From Sporichthya sp. (GTDB taxonomy: Bacteria > Actinomycetota > Actinomycetes > Sporichthyales > Sporichthyaceae), in assembly GCF_013815995.1 (NCBI RefSeq), contig NZ_JACDFE010000012.1, positions 1 to 38,365 of the forward strand: a stretch of 38,365 nucleotides of DNA. Reading direction: 5' to 3'. The notes under the pieces were generated by a model. The model was not told the DNA's origin, made no database searches, and was given only the letters and a program-made list of their open reading frames with translations. Positions 3,351-36,477 of this stretch are shown in pieces. The translations under genes were made by a program, and so were the position numbers. The first letter of the stretch is position 1. The number at the start of each line of letters is the position of its first letter.

Positions 3351-4013
3351 TCAGGCGGTACGGGCCTTGCCGCGCCGGGTCGCGGGCTTGGCGGCAGCGG
3401 GAGATGCCGCGGCGTTCTCGCGGGCGACCTTCACGGTGGCCGCGACGATCTGCTCGCAGACCAGGTCGAAGATCTCGTCCGCGCTCAGCGCCCGCTCCGC
3501 CTCGGCCTGGGCCATGTGCGGAGCCCGCTTCGGGTCCGGCTTCGTCGCGCCGGCGGCGGACTCGTGCAACGCACTGCCGATCGCGTACAGCTCGAGTGCC
3601 TCCATCATCGGCGCGATGGCGCCGATCGGGACGCCCTCCTCGGCGAGCATCGCGAAGGTCGCGTCCAGCTGCGAGGTGCCGATGCCCAGCGGCTCGCGGC
3701 GAAGCATCACCGGGACCAGGTCCGGGTGGTCGCGGAAGGCGGCCCGCAGTCGCCGCGCGTTGCGCAGCAGCCAGACCTGCCAGGGCTCCTCGTGGCCCTG
3801 CGGGACCCGGACCTCCTCCAGGGCCAGCTTTGCGGCGCCGACGACGATCTCTTCCTTGTTCTGGAAGTGGTGGTAGAGCGAGGCGCCGTTGACGCCCAGG
3901 CGTTCGGCGAGGCGGCGGATGCTGAGCCCGTCGATGCCCTCGGTGTCGATGATGTCCAGTGCTGCCTCGAGCGCCGCGCGCTTGGAGATCAAGGGGACCT
4001 TCGGACGTGCCAC
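3351..4013 (-). CDS. TetR-family transcriptional regulator
   Basis: This is a 220-residue TetR-type repressor. The N-terminal helix-turn-helix is clear: ALDIIDTEGIDGLSIRRLAERLGV followed by SLYHHFQNKEEI, the recognition-helix signature of the family. The C-terminal part resembles the TetR_C ligand domain, and the tail is Ala/Lys/Arg rich. I chose the GTG at 4013 because AGGGAG lies nine bases upstream and VARPKVPLISK is a plausible start; the frame extends further upstream but without a good ribosome site. It begins 13 bp after the hydratase stop and ends 50 bp before the hydrolase, whose promoter holds a matching inverted repeat. The ligand is unknown. Confidence 0.85.
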   Translation of the reverse strand: MARPKVPLISKRAALEAALDIIDTEGIDGLSIRRLAERLGVNGASLYHHFQNKEEIVVGAAKLALEEVRVPQGHEEPWQVWLLRNARRLRAAFRDHPDLVPVMLRREPLGIGTSQLDATFAMLAEEGVPIGAIAPMMEALELYAIGSALHESAAGATKPDPKRAPHMAQAEAERALSADEIFDLVCEQIVAATVKVARENAAASPAAAKPATRRGKARTA

Positions 4014-4026
4014 GTCGACGTTCTCC

Positions 4027-4767
4027 CTAGCTCGGTGCGGTGATGTTAGCGAGCAGGCCCAGAAACACGGTGCGGTCGAGCTCCAGTCGTGATTCAACCG
4101 TGAGCGCGGTCTGGTCGTGCAGCAGCGCGCGGGCCGCGAGCAGCGCCGCCCGCGGCTTGGCCGCCAGCGCGGCGGTGCGCTCAGCCACCAGGGCGTCGAG
4201 TTCCTCGGCCGAGTCCACCACGGCGGTCACCAGGCCGATCCGGTGCGCCTCGGCGGCCGGGATCCGCTCGCCCAGCAGCATCAGCTCCGCGGCTTTCTGA
4301 TGACCCGTCAGGCGAGGGAGCAGCAGGGTGGACGCCGCTTCCGGAACCAGCCCGAGGTCGACGAAGGGGAAGCCGAAGATGCTGCGGTGCGTCGCGTAGA
4401 CCAGATCGCAGTGTAACAGCACCGTCGAGCCGATCCCGAGGGCCGGGCCGTCGACGGCTGCGACCAGCACCGAGCGCAGGGCGGTCAGCGCCTGCAGAAA
4501 CCGGCCCGGCGGCGAGTCCTCGCCGCGCACCGGATTCGCAGCCATGTCCCCCAGGTCGTTGCCCGCGGTGAAGGCACCGCCGGCGCCGGTGAGCACCAGG
4601 ACCGCGGCACCATCGGCGTCGGCCTTGCCGAGTTCGTCGGCGAGGCGGGCGTACATCGCCGTGGTGATCGCGTTGCGCTTCTCCGGCCGGTTGAACCGGA
4701 TCGTCAGCACGTCGCCGACGCGCTCGACCTCGATGTCGGAGGAGACGTCGGAGGAGAGATCACTCAC
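4027..4767 (-). CDS. Enoyl-CoA hydratase/isomerase family protein
   Basis: This 246-residue crotonase-fold protein would hydrate or isomerise an enoyl-CoA in beta-oxidation. The N-terminal VLTIRFNRPEKRNAIT is typical. The first oxyanion-hole segment is AFTAGNDLGDM, and the second is GPALGIGSTVLLHCDLVYA. The usual first catalytic Glu region reads FPFVDLGLVPEAAS, which contains a Glu in the right place for a PECI or delta-isomerase type enzyme. The GTG at 4767-4765 overlaps the TGA of the upstream dehydrogenase fragment (GTGA), indicating former co-translation. The exact substrate is unknown. Confidence 0.85.
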   Translation of the reverse strand: MSDLSSDVSSDIEVERVGDVLTIRFNRPEKRNAITTAMYARLADELGKADADGAAVLVLTGAGGAFTAGNDLGDMAANPVRGEDSPPGRFLQALTALRSVLVAAVDGPALGIGSTVLLHCDLVYATHRSIFGFPFVDLGLVPEAASTLLLPRLTGHQKAAELMLLGERIPAAEAHRIGLVTAVVDSAEELDALVAERTAALAAKPRAALLAARALLHDQTALTVESRLELDRTVFLGLLANITAPS

Positions 4768-10085: not shown

Positions 10086-10664
10086 ATGACTGCCGTGGGT
10101 CGCGTCCTGCTCCGCGTGCTGCTGAGCGCCCTCGGGCTGCTGCTGTTCGTGGGCAGTCGGGTGAGCCGCCGGTTCCGCGCGCAGATCACCCGGGACGTCG
10201 TCATCGAGGTGACGAGTGAGGACGGGGTCGCCCATCACTACGCGTTCACGGGCCTTACCCGGTCGGTTCGGTCCGGCCGGGGCCGAGCACCGGCCCCGGC
10301 CGATCTGGCCGTCACCTTCGACACCGCCATGCTCGGCTTCCGGACGCTGATCCGCACCGACGCGGTCGGGACGGTCATCGGGCTGATGCACCAGCGTCGC
10401 GTGACCTACACCGGCAACGCCGTCTACGTGCTCTGGTTCTGGGGCCTGACCCGGATGGTGCTGCCGTACGGGCGGGAGCGCCGCGACCGGACGCCGCTGC
10501 CCGGCGCCCTGCTCGCGCCCGACCCCGCCAGCAAGGTCGCCGACCGGATCACCCGCGAGCCGGTGGCCAGCACTCTCGACGCGGCCTGGCCCGAGGCGCA
10601 CGTCGCGCAGCGCGCGTTGCCTTTGGTCCGCGGCTCCAGCGGCGAGGACGTGACGATGTGGTGA
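10086..10664 (+). CDS. SCP2-like protein with N-terminal membrane anchor
   Basis: The 192-residue product begins with a hydrophobic helix (about residues 5-24, VLLRVLLSALGLLLFVG) followed by basic residues, so it is probably anchored to the membrane with a cytoplasmic C-terminal part. The central region (VVIEVTSEDGVAHHYAF, ADLAVTFDTAMLGFRTLI, then LMHQRRVTYTGN) resembles sterol-carrier-protein-2-like folds that bind lipids. I recognise this only by pattern. The ATG directly follows a palindrome. Its TGA overlaps the GTG of the next gene (GTGA), so it is coupled to the LDI-like protein. A lipid- or isoprenoid-binding accessory role is inference. Confidence 0.55.
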   Translation: MTAVGRVLLRVLLSALGLLLFVGSRVSRRFRAQITRDVVIEVTSEDGVAHHYAFTGLTRSVRSGRGRAPAPADLAVTFDTAMLGFRTLIRTDAVGTVIGLMHQRRVTYTGNAVYVLWFWGLTRMVLPYGRERRDRTPLPGALLAPDPASKVADRITREPVASTLDAAWPEAHVAQRALPLVRGSSGEDVTMW

Positions 10665-12280
10665 CCGACCCCGACACCCTTCCCCGCCTCGACGACCGGG
10701 CCCGCGGCTGGCTGCGGTTCATCTGGGAGAAGGCGACGACCCCGGACGACTGGTCCAGCGCCGGCGAGCCGAATCCGTGGTGGGACAGCACCTCCACCCC
10801 GCCGATGTGCAGCCTGGGCCGGTTCGACCTGCACGAGACCGGCTACGTGCTGCCGGTGATGTGCGACCTGACGCCGGCCTGGCGGGAGGGCTACGCCCGC
10901 ATCGCGGACGAGCTGGTGGGTCGCTACACGACCTTCTGGGCCGCGGTGGACTGGCTGACCACGATCGGGCCCGATCCGAACCAGGAGAACTATCCACCGC
11001 TCTGGCAGGCCTACCTGCCGGAGTTCCTCCGCGGCAGTTACGACGTCCCCGGCTGGACCGCGAACGGCGTCGCGCCGTGGGGTCTGCAGCCCGACCCGAT
11101 CGGGGCCGACGGCAACAACTTCTTCCGCGGCTTCTTCAACCTGCTGATCGGCTTCTACGACTACGTCGCCGGCGACGACAAGTGGGCGTCGCCATTCAAG
11201 GTGACCGGCTACCAGGACCGGCTCTTCGACTGGGACCGGCACCGCATCGTCAACTTCATGGTCGACCAGTGGGCCGAGCGGCCGGCCGGAGTGCACTGCG
11301 AGAACACCAAGGTCTGGCCGTTCTGCGTCTCCGGCGCCGGGCTCGGTCTCCAGCTCTACGACAAGCTGCACGGCAAGGACACCCACTACGTGTTCGGCCG
11401 CTGGGCGCAGTACTGCCGCGAGAACTACCTCAAGACCAACCGCCGCGGCGAGATCACCCAGTTCACCTTCTACTACGACCCGTTGGAGAAGGCCCACTTC
11501 CGGTTGCGGGACGAGGTCTCGGCGTACGCGTCGCTGGCCATCACCCCGTACGTGGTGCCGCAGGACCGCGAGCTGGGCGAGCTGCTCTACACGTCCTCGG
11601 TGCGCCGCCTCGGCTGGGACGACCCCCGCAAGCCGCTGCTGCAGCTGCACCCGGACCCGCGCTTCCTGCTGGTCGCGCTGGTGGTGGCCCGCGAGCTCGG
11701 CGACCACGAGACCGAGGCGCGCCTGCGCGCGGTGGCCGAGCGGGACTTCGAGCCCCGGTTCTTCGGCCCGGACGCCGACATGTTCGGCTGGTTCTTCGGC
11801 AACGGAGAGCCCTGGCCGCGGGGCCAGCTGGCCAGCCTGATGATGCTCAGCGAGCTCGGTGAGCCCGGTGCGTGGGGCCGGGTCTTCAACGAGCCCAACG
11901 TCGCCAAGTTCAGCCAGCCGACGGTCACCGGGGTCGACTACCCCCGCCTGGGGATCGCCCAGGCCTGGAATGCCCTCGACGCCGGGGTGCTCTGGGTCGA
12001 GACCTACGCGGGGACCACCGCGGCCCGCGGCGCCGCGACCGCGTTCTCGGTCACCCAGCTCCCGCACGTCGCCGACCTGGAGATCTCCTGCGACGGGGCC
12101 GAGTTCCCCGGCTGGCGGGCGTCCGGGCCGGATTCGATCGAGATCACCACGACGGTGGACGCCCACCGGTTCCGGATCCTGACCCGCTTTCACGGCTCGG
12201 ACGCCGCGACACGCGCGGTCACCACCACCACTCCGGGAACCGTGTATTCGCCCTCGGCCTGTGGCGGCGGGTGCTGCTAG
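10661..12280 (+). CDS. Linalool dehydratase/isomerase-like protein
   Basis: The 539-residue product looks like the (alpha/alpha) barrel family of Castellaniella linalool dehydratase-isomerase. Seen: FWAAVDWLTTIGPDPNQENYPP, an aromatic-rich NNFFRGFFNLLIGFYDYVAGDDKW segment, and GVHCENTKVWPFCVSG with Cys213 and Cys222. The spacing of nine residues between these cysteines equals that of the two active-site cysteines described for Ldi. No signal peptide is visible, whereas Ldi is periplasmic. The C-terminus is unusual: SACGGGCC. The GTG at 10661 overlaps the upstream stop. Neighbours (SCP2-like, DUF3556, phytoene-desaturase-like) suggest isoprenoid or other lipid chemistry, but the substrate is unknown. 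A different barrel family cannot be excluded. Confidence 0.6.
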   Translation: MTDPDTLPRLDDRARGWLRFIWEKATTPDDWSSAGEPNPWWDSTSTPPMCSLGRFDLHETGYVLPVMCDLTPAWREGYARIADELVGRYTTFWAAVDWLTTIGPDPNQENYPPLWQAYLPEFLRGSYDVPGWTANGVAPWGLQPDPIGADGNNFFRGFFNLLIGFYDYVAGDDKWASPFKVTGYQDRLFDWDRHRIVNFMVDQWAERPAGVHCENTKVWPFCVSGAGLGLQLYDKLHGKDTHYVFGRWAQYCRENYLKTNRRGEITQFTFYYDPLEKAHFRLRDEVSAYASLAITPYVVPQDRELGELLYTSSVRRLGWDDPRKPLLQLHPDPRFLLVALVVARELGDHETEARLRAVAERDFEPRFFGPDADMFGWFFGNGEPWPRGQLASLMMLSELGEPGAWGRVFNEPNVAKFSQPTVTGVDYPRLGIAQAWNALDAGVLWVETYAGTTAARGAATAFSVTQLPHVADLEISCDGAEFPGWRASGPDSIEITTTVDAHRFRILTRFHGSDAATRAVTTTTPGTVYSPSACGGGCC

Positions 12281-16473: not shown

Positions 16474-17349
16474 TCAGACCTGGGCCGCGTCGAAGTTTTC
16501 ACCGAGCGCGTCCTCGACCGCTTCACTGCCGAGGTAGGCCGCGCGGACCAGGTCGGAGGTGCCGACCTCACGTGCGGTGCCCTCGAAATTGGCTTACCGA
16601 AGTCCAGGACGTGGATGTAGTCACACGTGGACATGACCAGGGCCATGTCGTGCTCGACGATGAGGATCCCGACGCCGCGGTCGGCGACGAGGGAGCGCAG
16701 GATCTCCCCGAAGCGCTTGGTCTCGGGCTTGTCCAGGCCCGGAGGACGGCTCGTCGAGCAGCATGATCTGGAACCCGCCGGCCATGCAGCGGGCCAGTTC
16801 GACCAGGCGGCGCTGACCGGTGGACAGGTCGGCGGGACGGCGGTCGATCAGCTCGCTGATCCCGCAGGCGTCGATGGCCTCTTCCACGGCGCTGGCGACC
16901 GTGGCCGCGTCCGAGCGCTTGCCCAGGATGTGGCGCCACGGCTTGGACCCCGCGAGGCCCGCTTCTCGGCCGAGGGAGACGTTGTCCCGCACCGTCAGGG
17001 AGTCGAACAGTTCCATGCGCTGGAAGGTGCGCCCGAGGCCCTTCTGGGCCCGGTGGTGCGGGGTCGTCCCGGTGACGTCCTCACCGAAGAGGTGCACCGT
17101 GCCGGAGGTCGGGCGCAGTAGGCCGGTGCAGGCGTCGGCCCAGACGCCCTGGAAGAAGCTCGACATCGCGATGAGGGCCGCACCCATGCGGATCCCGTCG
17201 GTGTTCGCGTTGTACATGTCGGCGATCTCGCTCGCGGTCTGGTTCGCCTCCGGGGGAGGGAGCCACCCGGCCGCGAGGATGCCACCGAAGAAGACCGCGA
17301 CGAAGATCGGTCCACTCCACAGGCACGCGCGTTGGATTCCCGGCGTCAT
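16474..17349 (-). pseudogene. Chimera: membrane-protein N-terminus fused to LivG-like ATPase C-terminus, frameshifted
   Basis: From the ATG at 17349, about 70 codons (MTPGIQRACLWSGP, a membrane helix, then LPPPEANQTASEIADMYNANT) match the N-terminal pattern of the membrane protein at 25009-25746. Near 17120-17130 the frame continues without a break into the interior of a LivG ATPase (TGLLRPTSGTVHLFGEDVTG). Walker A is therefore absent, while the signature LSTGQRRLVELARCM and Walker B IMLLDEPSSG remain. An extra base near 16738 and a missing base in a T run near 16586 break the C-terminal part, which otherwise reads VGTSDLVRAAYLGSEAVEDALG to a TGA at 16476-16474. Without Walker A it cannot act as an ATPase. 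Confidence 0.8.
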
Positions 17350-17415
17350 CTGCCCAGCCAAAGTGTGTTTGTAACGTGGCTTCCATACTGAAAGTTCGCT
17401 CTAGAAAAGCGGGAG

Positions 17416-17455
17416 TTGACCGGCGGGCGACCATCTCGGACAATGTGTCCAGACT
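17416..17455 (+). promoter_or_regulatory. Promoter and operator A of the P450 operon
   Basis: A -35-like TTGACC (17416-17421), a 17-bp spacer and a -10-like GACAAT (17439-17444) precede the P450 gene. A perfect inverted repeat GGACA-ATG-TGTCC (17438-17450) overlies the -10. The reverse complement of 17436-17455 is AGTCTGGACACATTGTCCGA, identical at 19 of 20 bases to the site at 30601-30620. A repressor binding both sites, probably of TetR type, is inferred. Confidence 0.65.
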
Positions 17456-17497
17456 CTTTGTGTATCACGGTTTCAGGCTGCTGCGGAAGGACGCCCG

Positions 17498-18754
17498 ATG
17501 GGCCACCCCAAGCCCGACTACGACCCGGTCTCCCTCTCCCCGCTCGCGTTCTGGTCGAAGAACCCGCGCGGGCGCGACCAGGAGCTCTCGATCCTGCGCC
17601 GCGAGCGGCCGCTGAGCTGGCACCCGCCGGCGGAGGGCTCGATGATGGAGCCCGACGAGCAGCAGGACGGCTTCTGGGCCGTCACCTCCAACGCTCTGAT
17701 CAAAGAGGTGTCCACCCGCCCCGAGGACTTCTGCTCCGGTAGCGGGATCACCCTCGAAGAGGTCCCGACGGAGATCCTCGAGACGGTGAGCTCGTTCCTC
17801 GCCATGGACGCTCCGCGGCACACCCAGCTGCGCAAGCTGGTCTCCACGGCCTTCACCCCGCGCCGGGTGAAAATCATCGAGGAGCAGATCCACGCGCGCG
17901 CCGTCCGCATCGTCGATGACCTGCTGACCAAGCCCGAGGGCGACTTCGTCCACCAGGTCTCCATGCGTCTTCCGATGGAGACGATCTTCGACATGATGGG
18001 CGTGCCGGAGGAGTTCCACGCCGACACCGTCAGCGGCGTCGAGGGCATGGTCGCCTGGGCGGACGAAGAGGTCCGGGCCGGGCGTGCGCCCGAGGAACTT
18101 CTGATGGACTCCCTGCTGACCCTGCTCCGGGTCGCCACCACGCTGAGCGCGGACCGCCGGGAGAACCCGAAGGACGACCTGATGACCAACCTGGTCCAGG
18201 CCGAGGTCGACGGGGTCAAGATCACCGACGACGAGATCGCGGGCTACTTCTGCCTGCTCGCCGTCGCCGGCAACGACACCACGCGCAACACCACCTCCCA
18301 GACCGCGAAGGCGCTTACCGACTTCCCGGCGGCGCGCAAGCTGCTGATCGAGGACTTCGACAGCTACGCGGCCACGGCGGCCGAGGAGATGGTGCGTTGG
18401 GCGACCCCGGTCATGACCTTCCGGCGGACCGCGACCCGCGACACCGAGCTGAACGGCATCGCGATCTCCGAAGGGGACTGGCTCGGACTGTTCTACGAGT
18501 CCGGCAACCGGGACGAGGCCGCCTTCGCCGACCCCTGGACCTTCGACGTCAGCCGGAACCCGAACCCGCACGTCGGTTTCGGCGGCGGCGGACCGCACTT
18601 CTGCATGGGCAGCATGCTGGCCAAGACCCAGTTGCGGCACCTGTGGAAGGAGATCCTCACCCGCGCGCCGAACTTCGAGGTGGGCGAGCCGGAGTACCTG
18701 GTGGGTAACTTCATGTGTGCCACCAAGCGGCTGTCGTACAAGCTGAACCTCTGA
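17498..18754 (+). CDS. Cytochrome P450
   Basis: This 418-residue soluble bacterial P450 has the I-helix oxygen-activation motif AGNDTT (257-262), the K-helix ExxR as Glu297-Arg300, and the heme-binding loop FGGGGPHFCMG with Cys369 as axial ligand. Length and lack of membrane anchor fit class I bacterial enzymes, which need separate ferredoxin partners; none is visible nearby. WATPVMTFRRTATRD and FYESGNRDE are segments shared with the CYP125/CYP142-type steroid and terpene hydroxylase groups. The ATG at 17498 has GGAAGG upstream. It heads an operon with MaoC, two hydratases and an SDR, so the hydroxylated product is probably processed as a CoA ester. Operator A covers its promoter. Confidence 0.9.
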   Translation: MGHPKPDYDPVSLSPLAFWSKNPRGRDQELSILRRERPLSWHPPAEGSMMEPDEQQDGFWAVTSNALIKEVSTRPEDFCSGSGITLEEVPTEILETVSSFLAMDAPRHTQLRKLVSTAFTPRRVKIIEEQIHARAVRIVDDLLTKPEGDFVHQVSMRLPMETIFDMMGVPEEFHADTVSGVEGMVAWADEEVRAGRAPEELLMDSLLTLLRVATTLSADRRENPKDDLMTNLVQAEVDGVKITDDEIAGYFCLLAVAGNDTTRNTTSQTAKALTDFPAARKLLIEDFDSYAATAAEEMVRWATPVMTFRRTATRDTELNGIAISEGDWLGLFYESGNRDEAAFADPWTFDVSRNPNPHVGFGGGGPHFCMGSMLAKTQLRHLWKEILTRAPNFEVGEPEYLVGNFMCATKRLSYKLNL

Positions 18755-18776: not shown

Positions 18777-19229
18777 GTGCGTGTTTTCGCCACCCTCGAC
18801 GAGTTCGTCGCGGCGTCCGGTACCGACCTCGGATCCTCGGACTGGTTGACCGTCGACCAGAAGCGGATCGACACCTTCGCCGAGGCCACCGGCGATCATC
18901 AGTGGATTCACGTCGACCCCGAGAAGGCGGCGAGCGGGCCGTTCGGCACGACCATCGCGCACGGCCTGCTGACGCTCTCGCTGTACCCCGTCCTGATGTT
19001 CGAGGTGTACGAGGTCCAGAACATCAAGATGGGCCTGAACTACGGGTTCAACAAGGTGCGCTTCCCCTCTCCGGTCCCGGTCGATTCCGAGGTGCGTCTG
19101 ACCGTCTCGATCGGCGAGGTGACCACCTTCAACGGTGGGGCGCAGGCGATCATGCCCAGCGTGATGGAGATCAAGGGCGCGGCCAAACCGGCCGCGGTGC
19201 TCGAGGCGATCGTCCGGTTCATCGCGTGA
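18777..19229 (+). CDS. MaoC-family (R)-enoyl-CoA hydratase
   Basis: This 150-residue single hot-dog-fold hydratase adds water to 2-enoyl-CoA. The hydratase-2 motif is FAEATGDHQWIHVD, with the Asp40/His45 catalytic pair followed by the serine/glycine segment FGTTIAHGLLTLSL. The GTG start has AGGAG six bases upstream. It lies 22 bp after the P450 stop and overlaps the next hydratase by GTGA, so it is part of the P450 operon. Length is standard for the family. Confidence 0.92.
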   Translation: MRVFATLDEFVAASGTDLGSSDWLTVDQKRIDTFAEATGDHQWIHVDPEKAASGPFGTTIAHGLLTLSLYPVLMFEVYEVQNIKMGLNYGFNKVRFPSPVPVDSEVRLTVSIGEVTTFNGGAQAIMPSVMEIKGAAKPAAVLEAIVRFIA

Positions 19230-19999
19230 GCTCGGGCGACGAGGTCCTGGTCTCCGCGGACGACCGGGTCGGCCGGATCACGCTGAACCGGCCGGAAGCC
19301 AAGAACGCCATCACCGTCGAGCTCAGCCACGGGCTGGCCGCGGCCGTGCGCGAGCTCGAGGCCGACGTCGACGTCATCGTCATCCGTGGCGCCGGCGGCA
19401 CGTTCTGCGCGGGTGGCGACGTAGCCCAGCTCGACGCGCTGCGGGCCAAGGGTCGCGAGGACCTGGCCTCCCTGTTCTCCGCCTTCCGGGACGCCCGGGC
19501 CGCGATCGCGGCCGCCGAGGTGCCGGTGGTCGCGGTGGTCGAGGGCCACGCCGTGGCCGGCGGGTTCGAGCTGCTGCTGTCCTGCGACATCGTGTTGGCT
19601 TCGGAGTCCGCGGTGCTCTCGGACATCCATGCCCGGTTCGGTCAGATCCCCGGTGGCGGTGGGACGCAGCTGCTGCCGCGCCTCGTCGGGCTCAGCCGGG
19701 CGTCCGGACTGGTGCTGACCGGTGACGCCCTGACGGCCCATCAGGCACTGGAGTGGGGCCTGGTCTACGCCGTCGCTGCGGATGACGCGCTCGAAACGGA
19801 GCTGGACTCGCTGATCAAGCGCCTGACGGCGCGTGGGTCGCGGGCCGCCCGGACCCAGTCCAAGCGGCTGATGCGGGCCGGCCTCGAGATGCCGCTCGAG
19901 CACGGGCTCGACCTGGAGGCCGAGGCCGTGATCGACCACATCCTGGGCGACGCCGGGCAGGCCGCCACCGACGCCTTCACGAACCGGAAGGACAGCTGA
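19226..19999 (+). CDS. Enoyl-CoA hydratase/isomerase
   Basis: This 257-residue crotonase-family protein shows RITLNRPEAKNAIT, the oxyanion-hole segment FCAGGDVAQLDAL, and a second GHAVAGGFELLLSCDIVLAS. The catalytic region FGQIPGGGGTQLLPRLVG lacks the classical second glutamate (GGGG where PGxGG/E usually sits), which is common in side-reaction members. It starts at the GTG overlapping the MaoC stop. The reaction is unassigned; hydration or C-C hydrolysis is possible. Confidence 0.85.
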   Translation: MSSGDEVLVSADDRVGRITLNRPEAKNAITVELSHGLAAAVRELEADVDVIVIRGAGGTFCAGGDVAQLDALRAKGREDLASLFSAFRDARAAIAAAEVPVVAVVEGHAVAGGFELLLSCDIVLASESAVLSDIHARFGQIPGGGGTQLLPRLVGLSRASGLVLTGDALTAHQALEWGLVYAVAADDALETELDSLIKRLTARGSRAARTQSKRLMRAGLEMPLEHGLDLEAEAVIDHILGDAGQAATDAFTNRKDS

Positions 20000-20001
20000 A
20001 C

Positions 20002-20817
20002 TTGACCGAACCCAAGGCCCTGATCGCCGACGGGGACGTGCTGCTCGACCTCCACGAGGACGGCATCGGACACCTGCGCCTGAACCGGCCGGACGCGTCG
20101 AACGCGATGAGCAACGAGTTCCTGAAGGCGTTGTTCGACGCGGTGATGCGTTGCCACGGCGAGTCCGCGATGCGGGTGGTGGTGCTCTCGGGTGAAGGCC
20201 GGCACTTCTGCGCCGGCGGCGACATCAAGGACTTCGCGTCCAAGGGCGAGGGCCTGCCGGACTACCTGCGCGAGGCGACCACCTGGCTGGGGATGGTCGC
20301 GGGTTCGCTGATCCGCCTGCAACAGCCGGTCGTGGTCGCGGTGCAGGGTTACGCCGCCGGCGGCGGCGGGCTCGGCCTGGTCTGCGCCGGCGACCTGGTT
20401 GTCGCCGGCCAGGGCGCGAAATTCATGTCCGGCGCGACCCGGGCCGGGATGGCCCCCGACGCCGGATCCACCGTCGCGCTGCAGCGGATCGTCGGCTTCC
20501 GCAAGGCGATGGAGATCGTCCTGCTCAACCCGATCCTGAGCGCCGATGACGCGCTCGGCCTCGGGCTGGTCAACAAGGTGGTCGACGACTCCGCCGTGCT
20601 CGACGAGGCGTTCGAGATCGCGCGGGTGTTGGCTGCCGGCGCCCCGCTCGCGATGGGCGCGGCCAAGCGGCTGATGTGGGACGGCGTCGGCCGCTCGATC
20701 GAAGAAGCGTTCCCGGACGAGTCGCGCACCGTGTCCGCGCTGTCCGGAACCGCGGATGCCCGCGAGGCCCTGGCTGCGGTGATCGAGCGGCGCAAGCCGG
20801 AGTTCAAGGGTCACTGA
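20002..20817 (+). CDS. Enoyl-CoA hydratase/isomerase family protein
   Basis: A second, 271-residue crotonase-fold protein of the operon. Seen: LRLNRPDASNAMS, FCAGGDIKDFASKG, GYAAGGGGLGLVCAGDLVVAG and the acyl-pocket region ATRAGMAPDAGSTVALQRIVG, ending in the common RKPEFKGH tail. It starts at a TTG two bases after the previous stop and overlaps the SDR gene by TGATG. Having two paralogous hydratases plus MaoC suggests several double-bond steps, or ring opening, in one pathway. Confidence 0.85.
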   Translation: MTEPKALIADGDVLLDLHEDGIGHLRLNRPDASNAMSNEFLKALFDAVMRCHGESAMRVVVLSGEGRHFCAGGDIKDFASKGEGLPDYLREATTWLGMVAGSLIRLQQPVVVAVQGYAAGGGGLGLVCAGDLVVAGQGAKFMSGATRAGMAPDAGSTVALQRIVGFRKAMEIVLLNPILSADDALGLGLVNKVVDDSAVLDEAFEIARVLAAGAPLAMGAAKRLMWDGVGRSIEEAFPDESRTVSALSGTADAREALAAVIERRKPEFKGH

Positions 20818-21551
20818 TGCCGGACTTCAGCGGGCGTACCGCGGTCGTCACCGGGGGCGGTCGGGGCATCGGTGCCTCGATCTGCCGGGAGCTCGCGGCC
20901 GGCGGTGCCGCTGTGTATGTGGTCGACCGCGACGCCGAACCGGCCGAGGCTGTCGCTGCCGAGATCGGCGGCAAGGCCCTGGCGCTCGACGTCTGCGACG
21001 CCGACGCCGTCGAGGCCGCGCTGATCCCGCTGAACGCGGACATCCTGGTCAACAACGCCGGCTTCGACGAGCACTGCTGGTTCACCGACGCGACGCCGGC
21101 CTACTGGCGACGGCTGATCGCAGTGAACCTCGAGGGCGTCTTCGCCTGCACCCACGCCGTGCTGAAGGGGATGCAGGAGCGCAGCTACGGCCGCCTCGTT
21201 CACGTCTCCTCCGAGGCCGGCCGGATCGGTTCGAAGGGCAACGCCGTCTACTCCGCCGCCAAGGGCGGGGTGATCGTGTTCTCCAAGTCGATCGCCCTGG
21301 AGAACGCCCGTTTCGCCATCACGTCGAACACGATCCTCCCCGGCCCGATCGACACCCCCCTGCTCGATCAGGTCCGCGCCCACCCCAAGGGCGAGGAGAT
21401 GATCGCCGCGATGAAGAAGCTCACCCCCCTCGGCCGCCTCGGCACGCCTGAGGAGATCGCCCACGCCGTCGCCTTCCTCTGCTCCGAGCAAGCCGCGTAC
21501 ATCACCGGCGAAACTCTCGGCGTCTCCGGCGGCATGGGTATCGGCGCCTGA
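20817..21551 (+). CDS. SDR-family dehydrogenase, BadH-like
   Basis: This is a 244-residue short-chain dehydrogenase/reductase. The Rossmann motif is TGGGRGIG (12-19), NNAG is at about 79-82, the catalytic serine is in VSSEAG (131-132), and the YxxxK is Tyr145-Lys149. The Asp in VVDRDAE at the end of beta-2 favours NAD. The overall sequence (GFDEHCWFTDATPAYWRRLIAVNL, PLGRLGTPEEIA, VSGGMGIG) resembles 2-hydroxycyclohexanecarboxyl-CoA dehydrogenases of the BadH type. It is the last gene of the P450 operon, overlapping its neighbour by one base. Oxidation of a beta-hydroxyacyl-CoA, perhaps alicyclic, is inferred. Confidence 0.88.
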   Translation: MPDFSGRTAVVTGGGRGIGASICRELAAGGAAVYVVDRDAEPAEAVAAEIGGKALALDVCDADAVEAALIPLNADILVNNAGFDEHCWFTDATPAYWRRLIAVNLEGVFACTHAVLKGMQERSYGRLVHVSSEAGRIGSKGNAVYSAAKGGVIVFSKSIALENARFAITSNTILPGPIDTPLLDQVRAHPKGEEMIAAMKKLTPLGRLGTPEEIAHAVAFLCSEQAAYITGETLGVSGGMGIGA

Positions 21552-30576: not shown

Positions 30577-30628
30577 TTGGCGGGCTTCCTGCGGAGTGGT
30601 AGTCTGGACACACTGTCCGATCAGTGTG
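30577..30628 (+). promoter_or_regulatory. Promoter and operator B of the Rieske operon
   Basis: TTGGCG (30577-30582), 17 bp and TAGTCT (30600-30605) form a possible promoter. AGTCTGGACACACTGTCCGA (30601-30620) contains GGACA-CAC-TGTCC. A second, overlapping repeat CACACTG-N6-CAGTGTG spans 30609-30628. The 20-bp block matches operator A in inverted orientation with one mismatch. Confidence 0.65.
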
Positions 30629-30671
30629 ACCGACGTGTTACCGAGAACCGCCCCACCACCGGAGGACCTGC

Positions 30672-31223
30672 ATGCCGCAGGGGATCGTGGCGTACGCCGC
30701 GTACCTGCCCGCGCACCGCCTTGCGCTGGCCGATGTCGCAGCGACGCTGGGTGCGAGGCTCTCGCTGGTGGCCGGTCCGGGCAGCGGCGCCTCCGACCCG
30801 GGTTATGACTACACCTCCTTCCCCGAGGTGGTCGTGAGCTCGAACGACGCCTACGCGCAGGCCGGAATCTCGGCGACGGACCTCGACCTGGCCGAGGTGC
30901 ACGACTGCTTCACCCCGACCGAGATCGTCCTGATGGAGGACCTCGGGTTCTCCCCGCGGGGCAGTGCTTGGAAGGAGGTACTCACCGGCGACTTCGACCT
31001 CGGCGGGCGGATCTCGGTCAACCCCGACGGCGGGTTGAAGTCCTTCGGCCACCCTGTCGGGGCCAGCGGTCTGCGGATGCTCTTCGAGTGCTGGCTGCAG
31101 TTCCGCGGCGAGGCCGGGGAGCGCCAGCTCGACGATCCCAAGCTCGGTCTCACGCACAATCTGGGCGGTCGCCCGGGTAGTTGTGTCTCGTTCGTGTCCG
31201 TGGTCGGCAAGGAGCTGTCATGA
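30672..31223 (+). pseudogene. Chimera: HMG-CoA-synthase-like N-terminus joined to thiolase C-terminus
   Basis: The frame is open for 183 residues, but two families meet. Residues 1 to about 27 (MPQGIVAYAAYLPAHRLALADVAATLG by pattern) match the start of hydroxymethylglutaryl-CoA-synthase-like proteins. From about residue 30 (LSLVAGPGSG, DYTSFPEVVVSSNDAYAQAG, AEVHDCFTPTEIVLMEDLG, GGLKSFGHPVGASGLRM, LTHNLGGRPGSC) it is the C-terminal half of a thiolase/lipid-transfer type enzyme. The N-terminal catalytic cysteine domain of the thiolase is absent. The two genes normally lie side by side, so a single in-frame deletion near 30750-30760 explains it. A functional enzyme is unlikely. It overlaps the Rieske gene by ATGA. 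Confidence 0.75.
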
Positions 31224-32479
31224 CGTCCTTAGATGAAGCCGTCGGAAGCAAGTACGACGCGCTGATCCAGTCCGACCGGGTGCACGGGTCGCTCTACACC
31301 GACCCGGAGATCTTCGCCGAGGAGATGGCGAAGATCTACTACACCACGTGGGTCTACGTCGGACACGAGTCCGAGGTGCCCGAGCCCAACGACTACGTGG
31401 TCAAGCCGTTCGGTCCGCAGTCGGTGATTCTGAGCCGGGCCAAGGACGGGTCGATCCACCTCTTGCAGAACCGCTGCGCGCACCGCGCGAACCTGGTCTG
31501 CGACGCCCCCAAGGGGAACTCGACGGCGTTCCGCTGCCAGTACCACGGCTGGACCTACGCCAACGACGGCGAGCTGCTCGGTTTCCCCTACAAGAAGGGC
31601 TACGAGGGCGCCGACAGGTCCCAGCTCGGGCTGGGCAAGGTGCCGCGCGTGGAGTCCTACCAGGGCTTCGTGTTCGGCAGTTTCGCAACTGAGGGTCCCT
31701 CACTGACGGAGCACCTCGGGGACGCCGCCGGCGAGATCGACCGCCTGGTCCGGCTCTCGCCCACCGGCAAGATCAAGCTGACCGCGGGCTGGCTCAAGCA
31801 CAAGGCCAAGGCCAACTGGAAGATGCTGCTGGAGAACGAGACCGACGGGTATCACCCGCAGTTCGTGCACTCCTCGGTCTTCGCCGCCGCCGACAGCGGC
31901 ATCGGCGCGCTCTACTCGGACAACGCCGACGCGGTCAGCCGCGACCTCGGCGGTGGGCACACCGAGAATGACCTGCGCCCGGAGTTCCGCCGCCTCGGCA
32001 ACGTGATGGGCTGGTTCGGCACCACCGAGGACAAGGTGCCGAACTACGTCGCGAAGATGCGCGAGCTGCACGGGGAGAAGGCCGACGAGATCCTCATCGA
32101 GGGCTCGCCGCACCTGATGGTCTTCCCGAACCTGTTCATCGCGGAGATTCAGATCTTCGTCATCCAGCCCCTCGCGGTGGACGAGACCGTCCAGCACGTG
32201 ACGGCCATTCAGTTCGAGGACGGCGAGGAGATGAACCGCCGCCTGCTGCAGCAGACCATCGGCTCGGTCGGCCCGGCCGGCTTCCTGCTGGCCGACGACT
32301 CGGAGATGTACGAGCGGAATCAGCGCGGCGTGCAGGCCCGCAACCCGGAGTGGCTGGTTATCAACCGCGGCGCCAACCGGGAGCGCGTCGACGAGAACGG
32401 GCACCTGATCGGATACAACACTGACGAGGTCCCGATCCGGGCGATCTGGAAGCACTACAAGACCCTGATGGAGAAGTGA
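31220..32479 (+). CDS. Rieske oxygenase large (alpha) subunit
   Basis: This 419-residue ring-hydroxylating oxygenase alpha subunit has the Rieske [2Fe-2S] ligands Cys86-His88 (RCAHRA) and Cys106-His109 (CQYHGW). The mononuclear iron site is formed by His212 and His217 in ETDGYHPQFVH, with a bridging acid (Asp209 or Glu207) and a distal acid not securely identified. Cytoplasmic; it needs ferredoxin and reductase partners that are not in view. The ATG overlaps the thiolase chimera stop. The beta subunit follows (TGATG). The substrate is probably an aromatic or cyclic acid and is unassigned. Confidence 0.92.
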   Translation: MTSLDEAVGSKYDALIQSDRVHGSLYTDPEIFAEEMAKIYYTTWVYVGHESEVPEPNDYVVKPFGPQSVILSRAKDGSIHLLQNRCAHRANLVCDAPKGNSTAFRCQYHGWTYANDGELLGFPYKKGYEGADRSQLGLGKVPRVESYQGFVFGSFATEGPSLTEHLGDAAGEIDRLVRLSPTGKIKLTAGWLKHKAKANWKMLLENETDGYHPQFVHSSVFAAADSGIGALYSDNADAVSRDLGGGHTENDLRPEFRRLGNVMGWFGTTEDKVPNYVAKMRELHGEKADEILIEGSPHLMVFPNLFIAEIQIFVIQPLAVDETVQHVTAIQFEDGEEMNRRLLQQTIGSVGPAGFLLADDSEMYERNQRGVQARNPEWLVINRGANRERVDENGHLIGYNTDEVPIRAIWKHYKTLMEK

Positions 32480-33003
32480 TGACGGCGGTGGCCGAAGGGT
32501 CGATCGAACTCGGGACCATCGCTCAGGCCGAGGCCGAGCAGTTCCTCTACCGCGAGGCCCGCCTCGCCGACGCCCACGACTACGACGGGTGGGAGGCGCT
32601 GTGGACCGACGACGCCATCTACTGGGTCCCCGCCGGGGGTGAGTCCGCCGAGGACCCGAACACGCAGGTCTCGGTGCTCTTCGACAACCGGTCGCGGATC
32701 GGCACCCGGATCCGTCAGCTGAAGTCGGGCAAGCGACACTCGCAGACCCCGAAGTCCAACGTGGTGCACCAGATCACCAACGTCGAGGTCCTCGGTTTGC
32801 AGGAGAACGGCGACACCGAGGTCGTCGCCTCGCTGCTCGCGGTCGAGTCGCGCGAACGCGGCACCACGTTCTGGGCCGGCCGCGTCGAGTACCGGCTGCG
32901 GCGGGTCGACACCGATCAAGGGTCGGAGCTTCGCCTGGCCTTCAAGAAGGTCACCCTGGTCGACCGCGACCAGCCGCTCTACACGCTCTCGTTCCTGATC
33001 TGA
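32479..33003 (+). CDS. Rieske oxygenase small (beta) subunit
   Basis: This 174-residue NTF2-fold beta subunit shows AEQFLYREARLADAHDYDGWEALW, the DDAIYWVPA strand, TRIRQLKSGKRHSQTPKSNV and the C-terminal KKVTLVDRDQPLYTLSFLI. It forms the alpha3beta3 core with the preceding protein. The ATG at 32479 overlaps the alpha stop as TGATG; a GTG three bases earlier is in frame. A nine-base gap separates it from the next small gene. Confidence 0.92.
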   Translation: MTAVAEGSIELGTIAQAEAEQFLYREARLADAHDYDGWEALWTDDAIYWVPAGGESAEDPNTQVSVLFDNRSRIGTRIRQLKSGKRHSQTPKSNVVHQITNVEVLGLQENGDTEVVASLLAVESRERGTTFWAGRVEYRLRRVDTDQGSELRLAFKKVTLVDRDQPLYTLSFLI

Positions 33004-33770: not shown

Positions 33771-33784
33771 TCGCAACATTGCGA
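33771..33784. promoter_or_regulatory. Palindrome upstream of TetR gene
   Basis: TCGCAA-CA-TTGCGA is a perfect dyad located nine bases before the GTG of the TetR gene. Probable autoregulatory operator; it may also serve the divergent small gene. Confidence 0.5.
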
Positions 33785-33793
33785 TGGCGTACC

Positions 33794-34426
33794 GTGAACG
33801 ACGTGCCGGGTCAGTCGAAGGTCGAGCTGCGTCGCTCCCGGGTCCGGCGGGATCTGGCGCATTGCGCGGTCACGTTGATGACCGAGCAGGGCTTCGAGGC
33901 GACCACGGTCGCGGACATCGCCGCGGCCGCCGACTACCACCCGAGCAGCTTCTTCCGGTACTTCGCGGCCAAGGAGGACGCCGTCTTCATCGGTGTTCCG
34001 GAGGCGAGCGAAGCGTTCCGGGCTGCGTGTGCCGGAATCAAGCGCGGCGACGATGCCTGGCCGGTCGTGCGCGCCGGGGTGGTGGCGGGCGTCGAACACT
34101 TCACCGAGGCCGACCCGGACTTCTTCGCCGCCCAGTTCGGACTCTGGCTCTCCGACCCCGCCCTGCAGGGCCCGATGGCCACCAACCTGATCGTGTGGGA
34201 GCAGGTCATCGCCGCCGCCTTCGCGACTGCGGCCGGCTTGAAGCGGCCCGACCTGCACTGCTACGTCGTGGGCGGCGCGATCGTCAGTTCCTTACGGGCC
34301 TGCGTGCACGCGCAAGGCCAGGACTCCGACACCTTCACCGTCCGGGTCGAGCGGGCGATCGCCATGCTCGAGCAGGGGCTGCGGACCGGGCCGACCCGAC
34401 GAGGTAAACCGACCAACAGCCGTTGA
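33794..34426 (+). CDS. TetR-family transcriptional regulator
   Basis: This 210-residue regulator shows the N-terminal HTH: RVRRDLAHCAVTLMTEQGFEA then VADIAAAADYHPSSFFRYF and AAKEDAVF. The C-terminal part, PDFFAAQFGLWLSDPALQGP, is of the type seen with mycofactocin- or P450-linked TetR proteins. I chose the GTG at 33794; an in-frame TTG (33779) and a GTG (33803) are alternatives. A palindrome precedes it. SRPBCC follows 58 bp later, and the BVMO/P450 pair beyond is a likely target. Confidence 0.85.
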   Translation: MNDVPGQSKVELRRSRVRRDLAHCAVTLMTEQGFEATTVADIAAAADYHPSSFFRYFAAKEDAVFIGVPEASEAFRAACAGIKRGDDAWPVVRAGVVAGVEHFTEADPDFFAAQFGLWLSDPALQGPMATNLIVWEQVIAAAFATAAGLKRPDLHCYVVGGAIVSSLRACVHAQGQDSDTFTVRVERAIAMLEQGLRTGPTRRGKPTNSR

Positions 34427-34980: not shown

Positions 34981-36447
34981 TCAACCGACCCGAGCGGGCG
35001 TGCGGGTCCGCGTGCTGAAGACGATGTCCTCGGTGATGTCGGCCCGGCGTGCGGCCAGGACATCGCCCAGGTAGTTCTGCGTGACCAGCCACGGGCCGGA
35101 GGTGCCCGCCTTCGGGAACTGCGCGATGCCGCGCTGGACGTAACCCGAGCTCAGGTCCAGGAACGGCCGGCGTTCCATCCCGGCCGGCGGGGTGGGCAGG
35201 GCGGTGTCGTAGCCGTGAGAGGCGAGGTGCCCGAGCAGGCGGGTCAGGTACCGCGCGGACAGGTCGGCCCGCAGCGTCCACGAGTTGTTGGAGTACCCGA
35301 AGCAGAAGCCGAAGTTCGGCACGCCGGAGAGCATCCACGCGCGGTAGGTCAGGGTGTCCGCGATGTCGACGGACTTGCCGTCGACCTCGAGCGTCAGCCC
35401 GCCCAGCGGCTTGAGCGCCAGCCCGGTCGCGGAGACGATGACCTCGGCCTCGAGGAACCGGCCGGACGTCAGCCTGATACCGCCCGACTCGAACCGCTCG
35501 ATGTGGTCGGTGACAACGTCGACGGAGCCGCCGCGGATCGCCTTGAACAGGTCGCCGTCCGGCACCAGGCACAGCCGCTGGTCCCACGGCTCGTAGTTCG
35601 GCGTGAAGTGCTCGTCGACGAGGGCGGAGTCCTTGAGGAAGTGCAGCGCGGTCCTGCGACAGATCCTTTTGAAGGTGTCCGGCCGCCGGCGGCTGAGCGC
35701 GTACATGGCCTGGATGGTCAGCACGTTCTTGGCCCGCACGACGCGGTGGGCGGCCCCGGCCGGCAGCACCTTCTGCAGGACGACGGCCAGTTGGTCGACC
35801 GCGGGCAGTGAGAGCACCCAGCTCGGCGTGCGCTGCAGCATCGTCACGTGCCCGGCGGTCGGGGCCATCGACGGCACCAGCGTGATCGCGGTGGCGCCGC
35901 TGCCGATGACCACGACGCGCTTGCCGGTGTAGTCCAGGTCCTTCGGCCAGAACTGCGGGTGGACGATCGTGCCCGCGAAGTCCTCCTGGCCGGGGAAGTG
36001 CGGGGTGTGGCCCTTGTCGTAGTCGTAGTAGCCGGTGCACAGGTAGACGAAGTTGGCCGTGATCTCGACCGGCGCTCCGGCGCTCTCCGCGCGGACCGTC
36101 CAACGCGCGTCGGCGGAGGACCACGAAGCGCCGAGCGCCTTGGTGCGGTACCGGATGCGGGAGTCCACGCCGGACTCGCGGGCCAGGTCGCGGATGTAGG
36201 TGCGCAGCGAGTCGCCCGAGGTGATCGACTCCCGGCCCTTCCACGGCTTGAACGAGAAGCCCATCGTGAAGGCGTCGGTGTCGGAGCGGATCCCGGGGTA
36301 CTGGAACAGGTCCCAGGTCCCACCGATCGCGTCCCGGGCCTCCAGCACCTCGTAGCTGAGGCCGGGACGCTCGCGCTGCAACCGGGCTGCGGCGCCGATG
36401 CCGGAGAGACCCGCACCGATGATCAGAACGTCGACGTGGTCACTCAT
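34981..36447 (-). CDS. Flavin-containing monooxygenase, Baeyer-Villiger type
   Basis: This 488-residue flavoprotein has two Rossmann motifs, GAGLSG (11-16) and GSGATA (182-187), flanking the Baeyer-Villiger fingerprint FAGTIVHPQFWP (Phe157, Gly159, His163, Trp167, Pro168). GGTWDLFQYPGIRSDTD is the family FAD/NADPH region and resembles the EthA-type enzymes. It would insert oxygen next to a ketone, forming an ester or lactone. The ATG at 36447 has GGAGG six bases upstream. The P450 upstream ends 30 bp away, so the two are likely co-transcribed. The hydrolase at 2092 could open such an ester, but that is speculation. Confidence 0.88.
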   Translation of the reverse strand: MSDHVDVLIIGAGLSGIGAAARLQRERPGLSYEVLEARDAIGGTWDLFQYPGIRSDTDAFTMGFSFKPWKGRESITSGDSLRTYIRDLARESGVDSRIRYRTKALGASWSSADARWTVRAESAGAPVEITANFVYLCTGYYDYDKGHTPHFPGQEDFAGTIVHPQFWPKDLDYTGKRVVVIGSGATAITLVPSMAPTAGHVTMLQRTPSWVLSLPAVDQLAVVLQKVLPAGAAHRVVRAKNVLTIQAMYALSRRRPDTFKRICRRTALHFLKDSALVDEHFTPNYEPWDQRLCLVPDGDLFKAIRGGSVDVVTDHIERFESGGIRLTSGRFLEAEVIVSATGLALKPLGGLTLEVDGKSVDIADTLTYRAWMLSGVPNFGFCFGYSNNSWTLRADLSARYLTRLLGHLASHGYDTALPTPPAGMERRPFLDLSSGYVQRGIAQFPKAGTSGPWLVTQNYLGDVLAARRADITEDIVFSTRTRTPARVG

Positions 36448-36477
36448 CAAGGACCTCCGAAACAGCTCGAGCCGGGT

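What the first reader, a model, noticed from the sequence alone, without database searches (positions are those of the whole stretch)
17436..17455. Operator A: 20-bp motif shared with the Rieske operon, 13 kb away
The reverse complement here, AGTCTGGACACATTGTCCGA, differs by one base from 30601-30620. Both sit over a likely promoter upstream of catabolic operons and both centre on GGACA-N3-TGTCC. By chance a 19/20 match at two promoters is very unlikely. This points to one regulator linking the P450/MaoC/hydratase operon with the Rieske operon.
Basis: seen in the sequence. Interest (0 to 1): 0.7.

Follow-up and report, generated by a model that had tools for sequence, protein, structure and literature searches.

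The report
Shared repressor operator for catabolic operons
The short DNA motif found in front of two degradation operons is a real, conserved switch site, and the protein that most likely binds it is an EthR-like TetR repressor encoded nearby (just outside this window), which appears to control a genome-wide set of degradation genes and its own gene.

Summary
It is an operator. Both sites overlap the -10 of promoters with 17-bp spacing, and they are islands of conservation at the orthologous promoters in congeneric genomes. In a complete congeneric genome 14 sites lie within 2 mismatches (reversed-pattern control: 1); 12 of 14 precede genes. Orthologous sites precede an SDR, a PPDK-like enzyme, an ADH-P450 operon and a TetR gene.

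That TetR (P0001, contig C381) is the likely regulator: its promoter carries the site, it lies about 25 kb from the Rieske operon in relatives, and among 60 class genomes only the five with this TetR have the exact motif. The two TetRs inside the window fit poorly (one absent in two motif-bearing genomes, the other in one). P0001 folds like EthR.

New detail: a second, weaker GACA-N3-TGTC lies exactly 13 bp upstream, also in unrelated genomes, so two dimers probably bind.

New member of a known kind (TetR/EthR-type catabolic regulon). Substrate and ligand unknown; binding untested.

The parts
17436..17454 (-). Operator core of the P450 operon, GTCTGGACACATTGTCCGA (core GGACA-N3-TGTCC)
   Evidence: the same 19 bp at the orthologous promoters of G001 and G002
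17455..17461 (-). Left extension ACA-N4, the upstream weak half of a second GACA-N3-TGTC box 13 bp from the core
17416..17421 (+). Predicted -35 (TTGACC) of the P450 promoter
   Evidence: TTGACC also present 18 bp before GACAAT in G001 and G002
17439..17444 (+). Predicted -10 (GACAAT), inside the operator; 17-bp spacer
17498..18754 (+). Cytochrome P450; closest solved structure CYP268A2, then CYP124/CYP125
18777..19229 (+). MaoC-type hydratase
19250..19999 (+). Enoyl-CoA hydratase/isomerase
20002..20817 (+). Enoyl-CoA hydratase/isomerase
20676..21551 (+). Short-chain dehydrogenase, last gene of the P450 operon (domain begins at about residue 55 of this ORF)
30602..30620 (+). Operator core of the Rieske operon, GTCTGGACACACTGTCCGA
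   Evidence: same 19 bp in G001, G002, G003
30627..30633 (+). Additional half-site TGACCGA 13 bp downstream of TGTCCGA, conserved in G001, G002 and G003
30577..30582 (+). Predicted -35 (TTGGCG) of the Rieske promoter
   Evidence: TTGGCA in G001/G002
30600..30605 (+). Predicted -10 (TAGTCT), overlapping the operator; 17-bp spacer
30672..31223 (+). First ORF of the Rieske operon: apparent fusion of the first ~28 aa of an HMG-CoA-synthase-like/DUF35 protein to the last ~150 aa of a thiolase (two separate full genes in G001 and G002)
31181..32479 (+). Rieske ring-hydroxylating oxygenase alpha subunit
32476..33003 (+). Ring-hydroxylating oxygenase beta subunit
33779..34426 (+). MftR-like TetR regulator; judged NOT to be the regulator of this operator
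3351..4097 (-). TetR_C_1-type regulator; judged NOT to be the regulator of this operator

Best explanation
The two 20-mers are operators of one EthR-like TetR repressor, P0001. It is encoded outside the window (G000:C381:2416-3045), in the same catabolic gene cluster as judged from relatives. A dimer binds GGACA-N3-TGTCC. A weaker GACA-N3-TGTC exactly 13 bp upstream probably takes a second dimer. The operator covers the -10 of both promoters, so the bound repressor would block RNA polymerase at the P450-MaoC-ECH-ECH-SDR operon, the HMGCS/DUF35-thiolase-Rieske operon and its own promoter, which is divergent from a thiolase gene. An inducer, most likely a pathway intermediate such as an acyl-CoA, would release it. 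Shown here: the sites, their conservation, their position at predicted promoters, the autoregulatory site, the co-occurrence with P0001, the EthR-like predicted fold and the 13-bp repeat. Inferred: that P0001 binds, that it represses, and the ligand.
For: (1) Rare, promoter-placed sites. The own genome has 5 sites at 0-1 mismatch to the 19-mer: two in the window, plus C304, C374 and C381. C381 lies before the TetR P0001 and C304 before an SDR (Pfam of its G001 orthologue). G001 (complete, 5.5 Mb) has 14 sites at up to 2 mismatches against 1 for the reversed pattern; 12 of 14 lie before gene starts and 2 in coding DNA. (2) The orthologous promoters in G001-G004 keep the site while flanks diverge; orthology. 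(3) Exact TCTGGACANNNTGTCCGA occurs in 5 of 60 class genomes, exactly those with P0001 at E<=1e-30. The extended motif at up to 2 mismatches occurs 32 times in those 5 genomes (24.6 Mb) and 6 times in the other 55 (about 230 Mb). (4) P0001 orthologues at 50-68% in Pseudonocardia, Paraconexibacter, Patulibacter and Solirubrobacterales occur with Rieske, HMGCS/DUF35, thiolase or ECH orthologues and motif sites, often on the same stretch. Mycobacterial relatives (about 43%) are divergent from a P450 with TCTAGACA-N3-TGTCTAG or close variants between. (5) Negative control: a Pseudonocardia plasmid carrying the orthologous enzymes, from which the plasmid search returned no P0001 match, has no site within 2 mismatches in the 25 kb read. 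(6) The second box at -13 bp: permutation p<=5e-5 in 23 family sites and independently in 17 outside sites. (7) P0001 is EthR-like by Pfam EthR_C, PDB sequence search and AlphaFold/Foldseek.
Against: No binding or expression data exist. The five genomes sharing motif and regulator are one family, so common descent contributes to the co-occurrence, and the motif was partly learned from them. At 1 mismatch the 18-mer alone has a chance background of under one hit per genome in genomes without P0001. G001 and G002 carry paralogues of P0001 (35-42% identity) that could share some sites; one lies next to a site at G001:728507. At the window's Rieske site the upstream box is weak (AGT in place of ACA). 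Only the 25 kb around the enzyme cluster of the Pseudonocardia plasmid were scanned for the motif.
Confidence: 0.84

Rival explanations
1. One of the TetR proteins encoded inside the window (3351-4097 or 33779-34426) binds the operator.
For: They are physically close and of the right protein family.
Against: The MftR-like TetR is absent (E<=1e-25) in G003 and G004, and the 3351-4097 TetR is absent in G003, although G003 and G004 keep the operators at the orthologous promoters. No site within 4 mismatches lies at either gene's own promoter. P0001 is present in all five genomes and has the site at its own promoter.
Confidence: 0.06
2. Several paralogous EthR-like TetRs (P0001 and its 35-42% paralogues) share the sites, so this is an overlapping regulon and not a one-regulator switch.
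For: G001 and G002 carry further P0001-like genes (five and three), some in tandem; one tandem pair lies beside a site (G001:728507) upstream of a periplasmic binding protein.
Against: At the E<=1e-30 cut-off G000 and G003 carry only P0001, yet keep the motif at the same promoters.
Confidence: 0.25
3. The site is an activator box, or a site for a global regulator, and not a repressor operator.
For: The site's orientation relative to the gene differs between promoters and genomes, and some TetR proteins activate (general knowledge).
Against: Overlap of the operator with the predicted -10 at both promoters and its presence at the TetR's own promoter fit repression; the targets are largely catabolic and the exact motif is restricted to genomes with P0001.
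Confidence: 0.05
4. The 19/20 match is chance or a duplicated promoter fragment.
For: Two sites alone could come from a recent duplication.
Against: Flanks of the two sites are unrelated. The sites are conserved at separate promoters in other genomes, and shuffles give no second match.
Confidence: 0.01

Closest known systems
EthR of Mycobacterium tuberculosis (TetR family, EthR_C)
   Same: Same predicted fold over the full length (Foldseek top matches all EthR, E 2.8e-7, TM about 0.75-0.83; phmmer E 2.7e-10); EthR is reported to octamerise on its operator (title of Engohang-Ndong et al., cited in PMC5517500), comparable to the multi-box operator here
   Different: About 25% identity; divergent from a thiolase gene and not from the ethA monooxygenase; predicted to control several operons through a GGACA-N3-TGTCC core
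CprB / QacR type dimer-of-dimers TetR operators (PMC4150764)
   Same: A 22-28 bp operator bound by two dimers is a model for the two boxes at 13-bp offset seen here
   Different: Different ligands and targets; binding by two dimers is only inferred here
ipfABDEF ibuprofen cluster (Sphingomonas Ibu-2, Rhizorhabdus wittichii; PMC9195938, PMC6063337)
   Same: Enzyme logic: two-subunit Rieske oxygenase with a thiolase and a partner protein, proposed to oxygenate an aryl-CoA ester and remove the acyl-CoA
   Different: Here with a CYP268/124/125-like P450, MaoC and ECH genes and a TetR operator; ipfA expression was reported as not regulated by ibuprofen. No direct sequence comparison with ipf genes was made; that IpfE is a DUF35 protein is from memory

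Membership tests
TetR family, EthR-like subgroup (regulator P0001) | TetR_N helix-turn-helix plus EthR_C domain above the curated cut-offs | tested here: met
   TetR_N 32.4 bits (cut-off 24), EthR_C 31.8 bits (cut-off 27)
TetR family, EthR-like subgroup (regulator P0001) | EthR fold over the full length | tested here: met
   AlphaFold2 model pLDDT 91.5; the top 25 Foldseek PDB matches are all EthR
TetR family, EthR-like subgroup (regulator P0001) | Cooperative multimer (octamer) on a long operator | not testable with these tools
   Only sequence evidence: a second box 13 bp from the core
EthR orthologue in the strict sense | Divergent from an ethA-type Baeyer-Villiger monooxygenase | tested here: not met
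   P0001 is divergent from a thiolase gene; an FMO-like gene is in the cluster at 34981-36450 but without the operator
Autoregulated TetR operator | Operator at the regulator's own promoter | tested here: met
   Sites upstream of P0001 in G000-G004 and several outside orthologues
ipf-type aryl-CoA oxygenase/retro-aldol cluster | Rieske alpha and beta subunits plus thiolase plus DUF35 partner in one operon | tested here: met
   All four adjacent in G001-G004; in the window the DUF35 and thiolase genes appear as a truncated fusion
ipf-type aryl-CoA oxygenase/retro-aldol cluster | Activity on 2-arylpropionyl-CoA | not testable with these tools
   No enzyme assay possible

The most novel reading that the evidence does not exclude
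A single EthR-like TetR family, recognising a two-box operator with 13-bp pitch (GACA-N3-TGTC-N2-GACA-N3-TGTC), governs a conserved but undescribed catabolic regulon in Actinomycetota. The regulon joins P450 side-chain oxidation, CoA-ester ring dioxygenation and retro-aldol removal of the acyl-CoA. Its relatives occur in the ibuprofen degrader Patulibacter medicamentivorans I11, and a pathway CoA ester is the inducer.
Probability: 0.4. Interest if true: 0.6.

Novelty: new member of a known kind. Interest (0 to 1): 0.45.

Why it matters
The operator ties scattered genes (P450, Rieske, SDR, PPDK-like, ADH-P450, MaoC-like) into one probable pathway and names its regulator, so the regulon becomes a list of genes to test together for an undefined aromatic or branched-lipid degradation route. 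The same regulator-operator pair recurs in Pseudonocardia, Paraconexibacter, Patulibacter and, in altered form, mycobacteria. There a change in the recognition helix region (SRST to SRAS) goes with a change in the operator (TCTGGACA to TCTAGACA), which makes the recognition code testable.

Tried and rejected
The core TGGACA-N3-TGTCC alone (1 mismatch allowed) is too loose: 121 hits in the genome against 26 for the reversed control; exact core matches L007 (C212) and L010 (C350) lie in coding DNA, and L006 (C169) lies outside the predicted coding part but has no matching flanks. Sites C31:8906, C148:22060 and C191:5468 (2 mismatches) fall inside ORFs and were set aside; most 3-mismatch hits are coding. 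Hits that share only GTCCAGACCC-TGTCCGA (C217, C334) were left unassigned. Literature searches for the motif in print and for an actinobacterial P450/Rieske TetR regulon found nothing relevant in the results listed. The first TetR alignment held one wrongly oriented sequence and was replaced.

Full report
Observation. Both sites are exactly as described: 19/20 identity, opposite strands, centred on GGACA-N3-TGTCC. Dinucleotide shuffles of the window give no match at up to 3 mismatches. In the own genome (4.50 Mb, 383 contigs) the 20-mer at up to 3 mismatches has three places, and the reversed pattern none.

Promoter position. The P450 site ends 42 nt before the P450 start codon, the Rieske site 51 nt before the first ORF of its operon. 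At the P450 operon TTGACC (17416-17421), 17 bp and GACAAT (17439-17444) put the -10 inside the operator. At the Rieske operon TTGGCG (30577-30582), 17 bp and TAGTCT (30600-30605) put the -10 across its edge. TTGACC/GACAAT (18 bp apart) and TTGGCA/TAGTCT are kept in G001 and G002. These promoters are sequence predictions. In G003 the P450 site has the opposite orientation to that in G000-G002, as expected for a near-palindromic operator.

Genome-wide regulon. With GTCTGGACANNNTGTCCGA the own genome has further sites at 1 mismatch on C304, C374 and C381. In the complete congeneric genome G001 there are 14 sites at up to 2 mismatches against 1 for the reversed pattern. Twelve lie before gene starts: P450 operon, HMGCS/DUF35-thiolase-Rieske operon, TetR P0001 and the divergent thiolase (two sites), SDR, PPDK-like enzyme, ADH-P450 operon, a PEP-utilizer-domain protein, a periplasmic binding protein, a MaoC-like gene, and two sites before a small, apparently secreted protein. 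Two lie in coding DNA (810086, 4520451). The SDR, PPDK-like and ADH genes have orthologues with sites in G000, G001 and G002.

The regulator. The C381 sites lie between a thiolase gene and a TetR gene, P0001 (210 aa; TetR_N, EthR_C). In G001 and G002 this TetR lies about 25 kb beyond the Rieske operator on the same contig, so C29 (the window) and C381 are probably neighbouring parts of one cluster. Among 60 genomes of the class, exact TCTGGACANNNTGTCCGA occurs in five, the same five that hold P0001 at E<=1e-30. The extended motif at up to 2 mismatches occurs 32 times in those five genomes and 6 times in the other 55. These five are one family, so relatedness contributes. Outside it, P0001 orthologues (50-68%) in Pseudonocardia, Paraconexibacter, Patulibacter and Solirubrobacterales genomes occur with the same enzyme genes and sites, often on the same stretch. 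The window's own TetRs fail this test: one is missing in G003 and G004, the other in G003. A Pseudonocardia plasmid with P450, MaoC, Rieske alpha and beta, ECH, ECH and an SDR (75% identical to the C304 SDR) in one string, plus orthologues of the thiolase (71%) and acyl-CoA dehydrogenase (78%), shows independently that the operator-linked genes belong together; it gave no P0001 match and has no site within 2 mismatches in the 25 kb read.

Operator anatomy. In 15 representative sites the conserved part is TGTCTGGACA-N3-TGTCCGA with a further ACA at -7 to -5. This reads as two copies of GACA-N3-TGTC with centres 13 bp apart, the upstream copy weaker. Shuffling only the left flank gives p<=5e-5 in 23 family sites and, independently, in 17 sites from outside genomes. 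The pattern NACANNNTGTCTGGACANNNTGTCC at up to 3 mismatches gives 22 hits in G001 and 15 in G000, with 1 reversed hit each. The Rieske operators of G000-G003 carry a third half-site, TGACCGA, 13 bp downstream. Mycobacterial relatives of P0001 that are divergent from a P450 have TCTAGACA-N3-TGTCTAG-TCA-N3-TGTC or close variants with the same 13-bp pitch, and there the helix region reads SRAS in place of SRST. Two dimers on one operator is known for QacR and CprB (PMC4150764). For EthR an octamer is reported (title of Engohang-Ndong et al., cited in PMC5517500); that paper itself was not read.

Fold. The AlphaFold2 model of P0001 (pLDDT 91.5) matches EthR best, the top 25 PDB matches being EthR at E 2.8e-7 to 6e-6 with about 25% identity; the sequence search agrees (E 2.7e-10).

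Pathway. The P450 is closest to CYP268A2 and then CYP124/CYP125, the latter two named as methyl-branched lipid and steroid hydroxylases in the PDB. The Rieske alpha subunit is related to phenylpropionate and naphthalene dioxygenases. The HMGCS/DUF35 protein carries ChsH2-like domains. The Rieske alpha/beta, thiolase, DUF35 set resembles ipfABDE, for which dioxygenation of an aryl-CoA ester and removal of the acyl-CoA are proposed (PMC6063337). Patulibacter I11, reported to raise a Rieske protein, an acyl-CoA synthetase and an ECH with ibuprofen, holds a 68% orthologue of the Rieske alpha with operator-like sites and P0001 relatives. Whether that is the induced protein is not known, so the substrate remains open.

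Verdict. Operator: very likely. P0001 as its regulator: likely. Repression, two-dimer binding and an acyl-CoA-type inducer: reasonable inference. This is a new, well-delimited example of a known kind of system.

Noticed in passing
30672-31223: The first ORF of the Rieske operon joins the first ~28 aa of the HMGCS/DUF35 protein to the last ~150 aa of the thiolase; G001 and G002 have two full genes there, about 2 kb more. Real deletion or assembly artefact.
   Followed up: partly
16621-17361: The ABC-type ORF divergent from the P450 joins parts that lie about 8 kb apart in G001 (residues 2-92 and 76-215 match different genes); a second apparent deletion fusion next to an operator.
   Followed up: partly
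1057-1988: A luciferase-like monooxygenase is split over two reading frames, which suggests frameshifts or assembly indels in this contig.
   Followed up: no
10658-12280: ORF with a linalool dehydratase/isomerase (Ldi) domain match, followed by a DUF3556 gene; hints at terpenoid chemistry in the cluster.
   Followed up: no
L108, L109, L115, L117-L120, L123, L127, L128: Mycobacterial P0001 relatives sit divergent from a P450 with TCTAGACA-N3-TGTCTAG or close variants between; a matched change of recognition helix and operator.
   Followed up: partly
L183:4091-5292 (G001:728590-729827): Tandem TetR paralogues of P0001, the second with an in-frame TGA, beside an operator-like site upstream of a periplasmic binding protein.
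   Followed up: no
G001:C1:2576701-2576726: A strong two-box site (ACAGAGTGTCTAGTCATTGTGTCC) about 7 kb from P0001, between divergent genes; TCTAG variant as in mycobacteria, also in G002.
   Followed up: no
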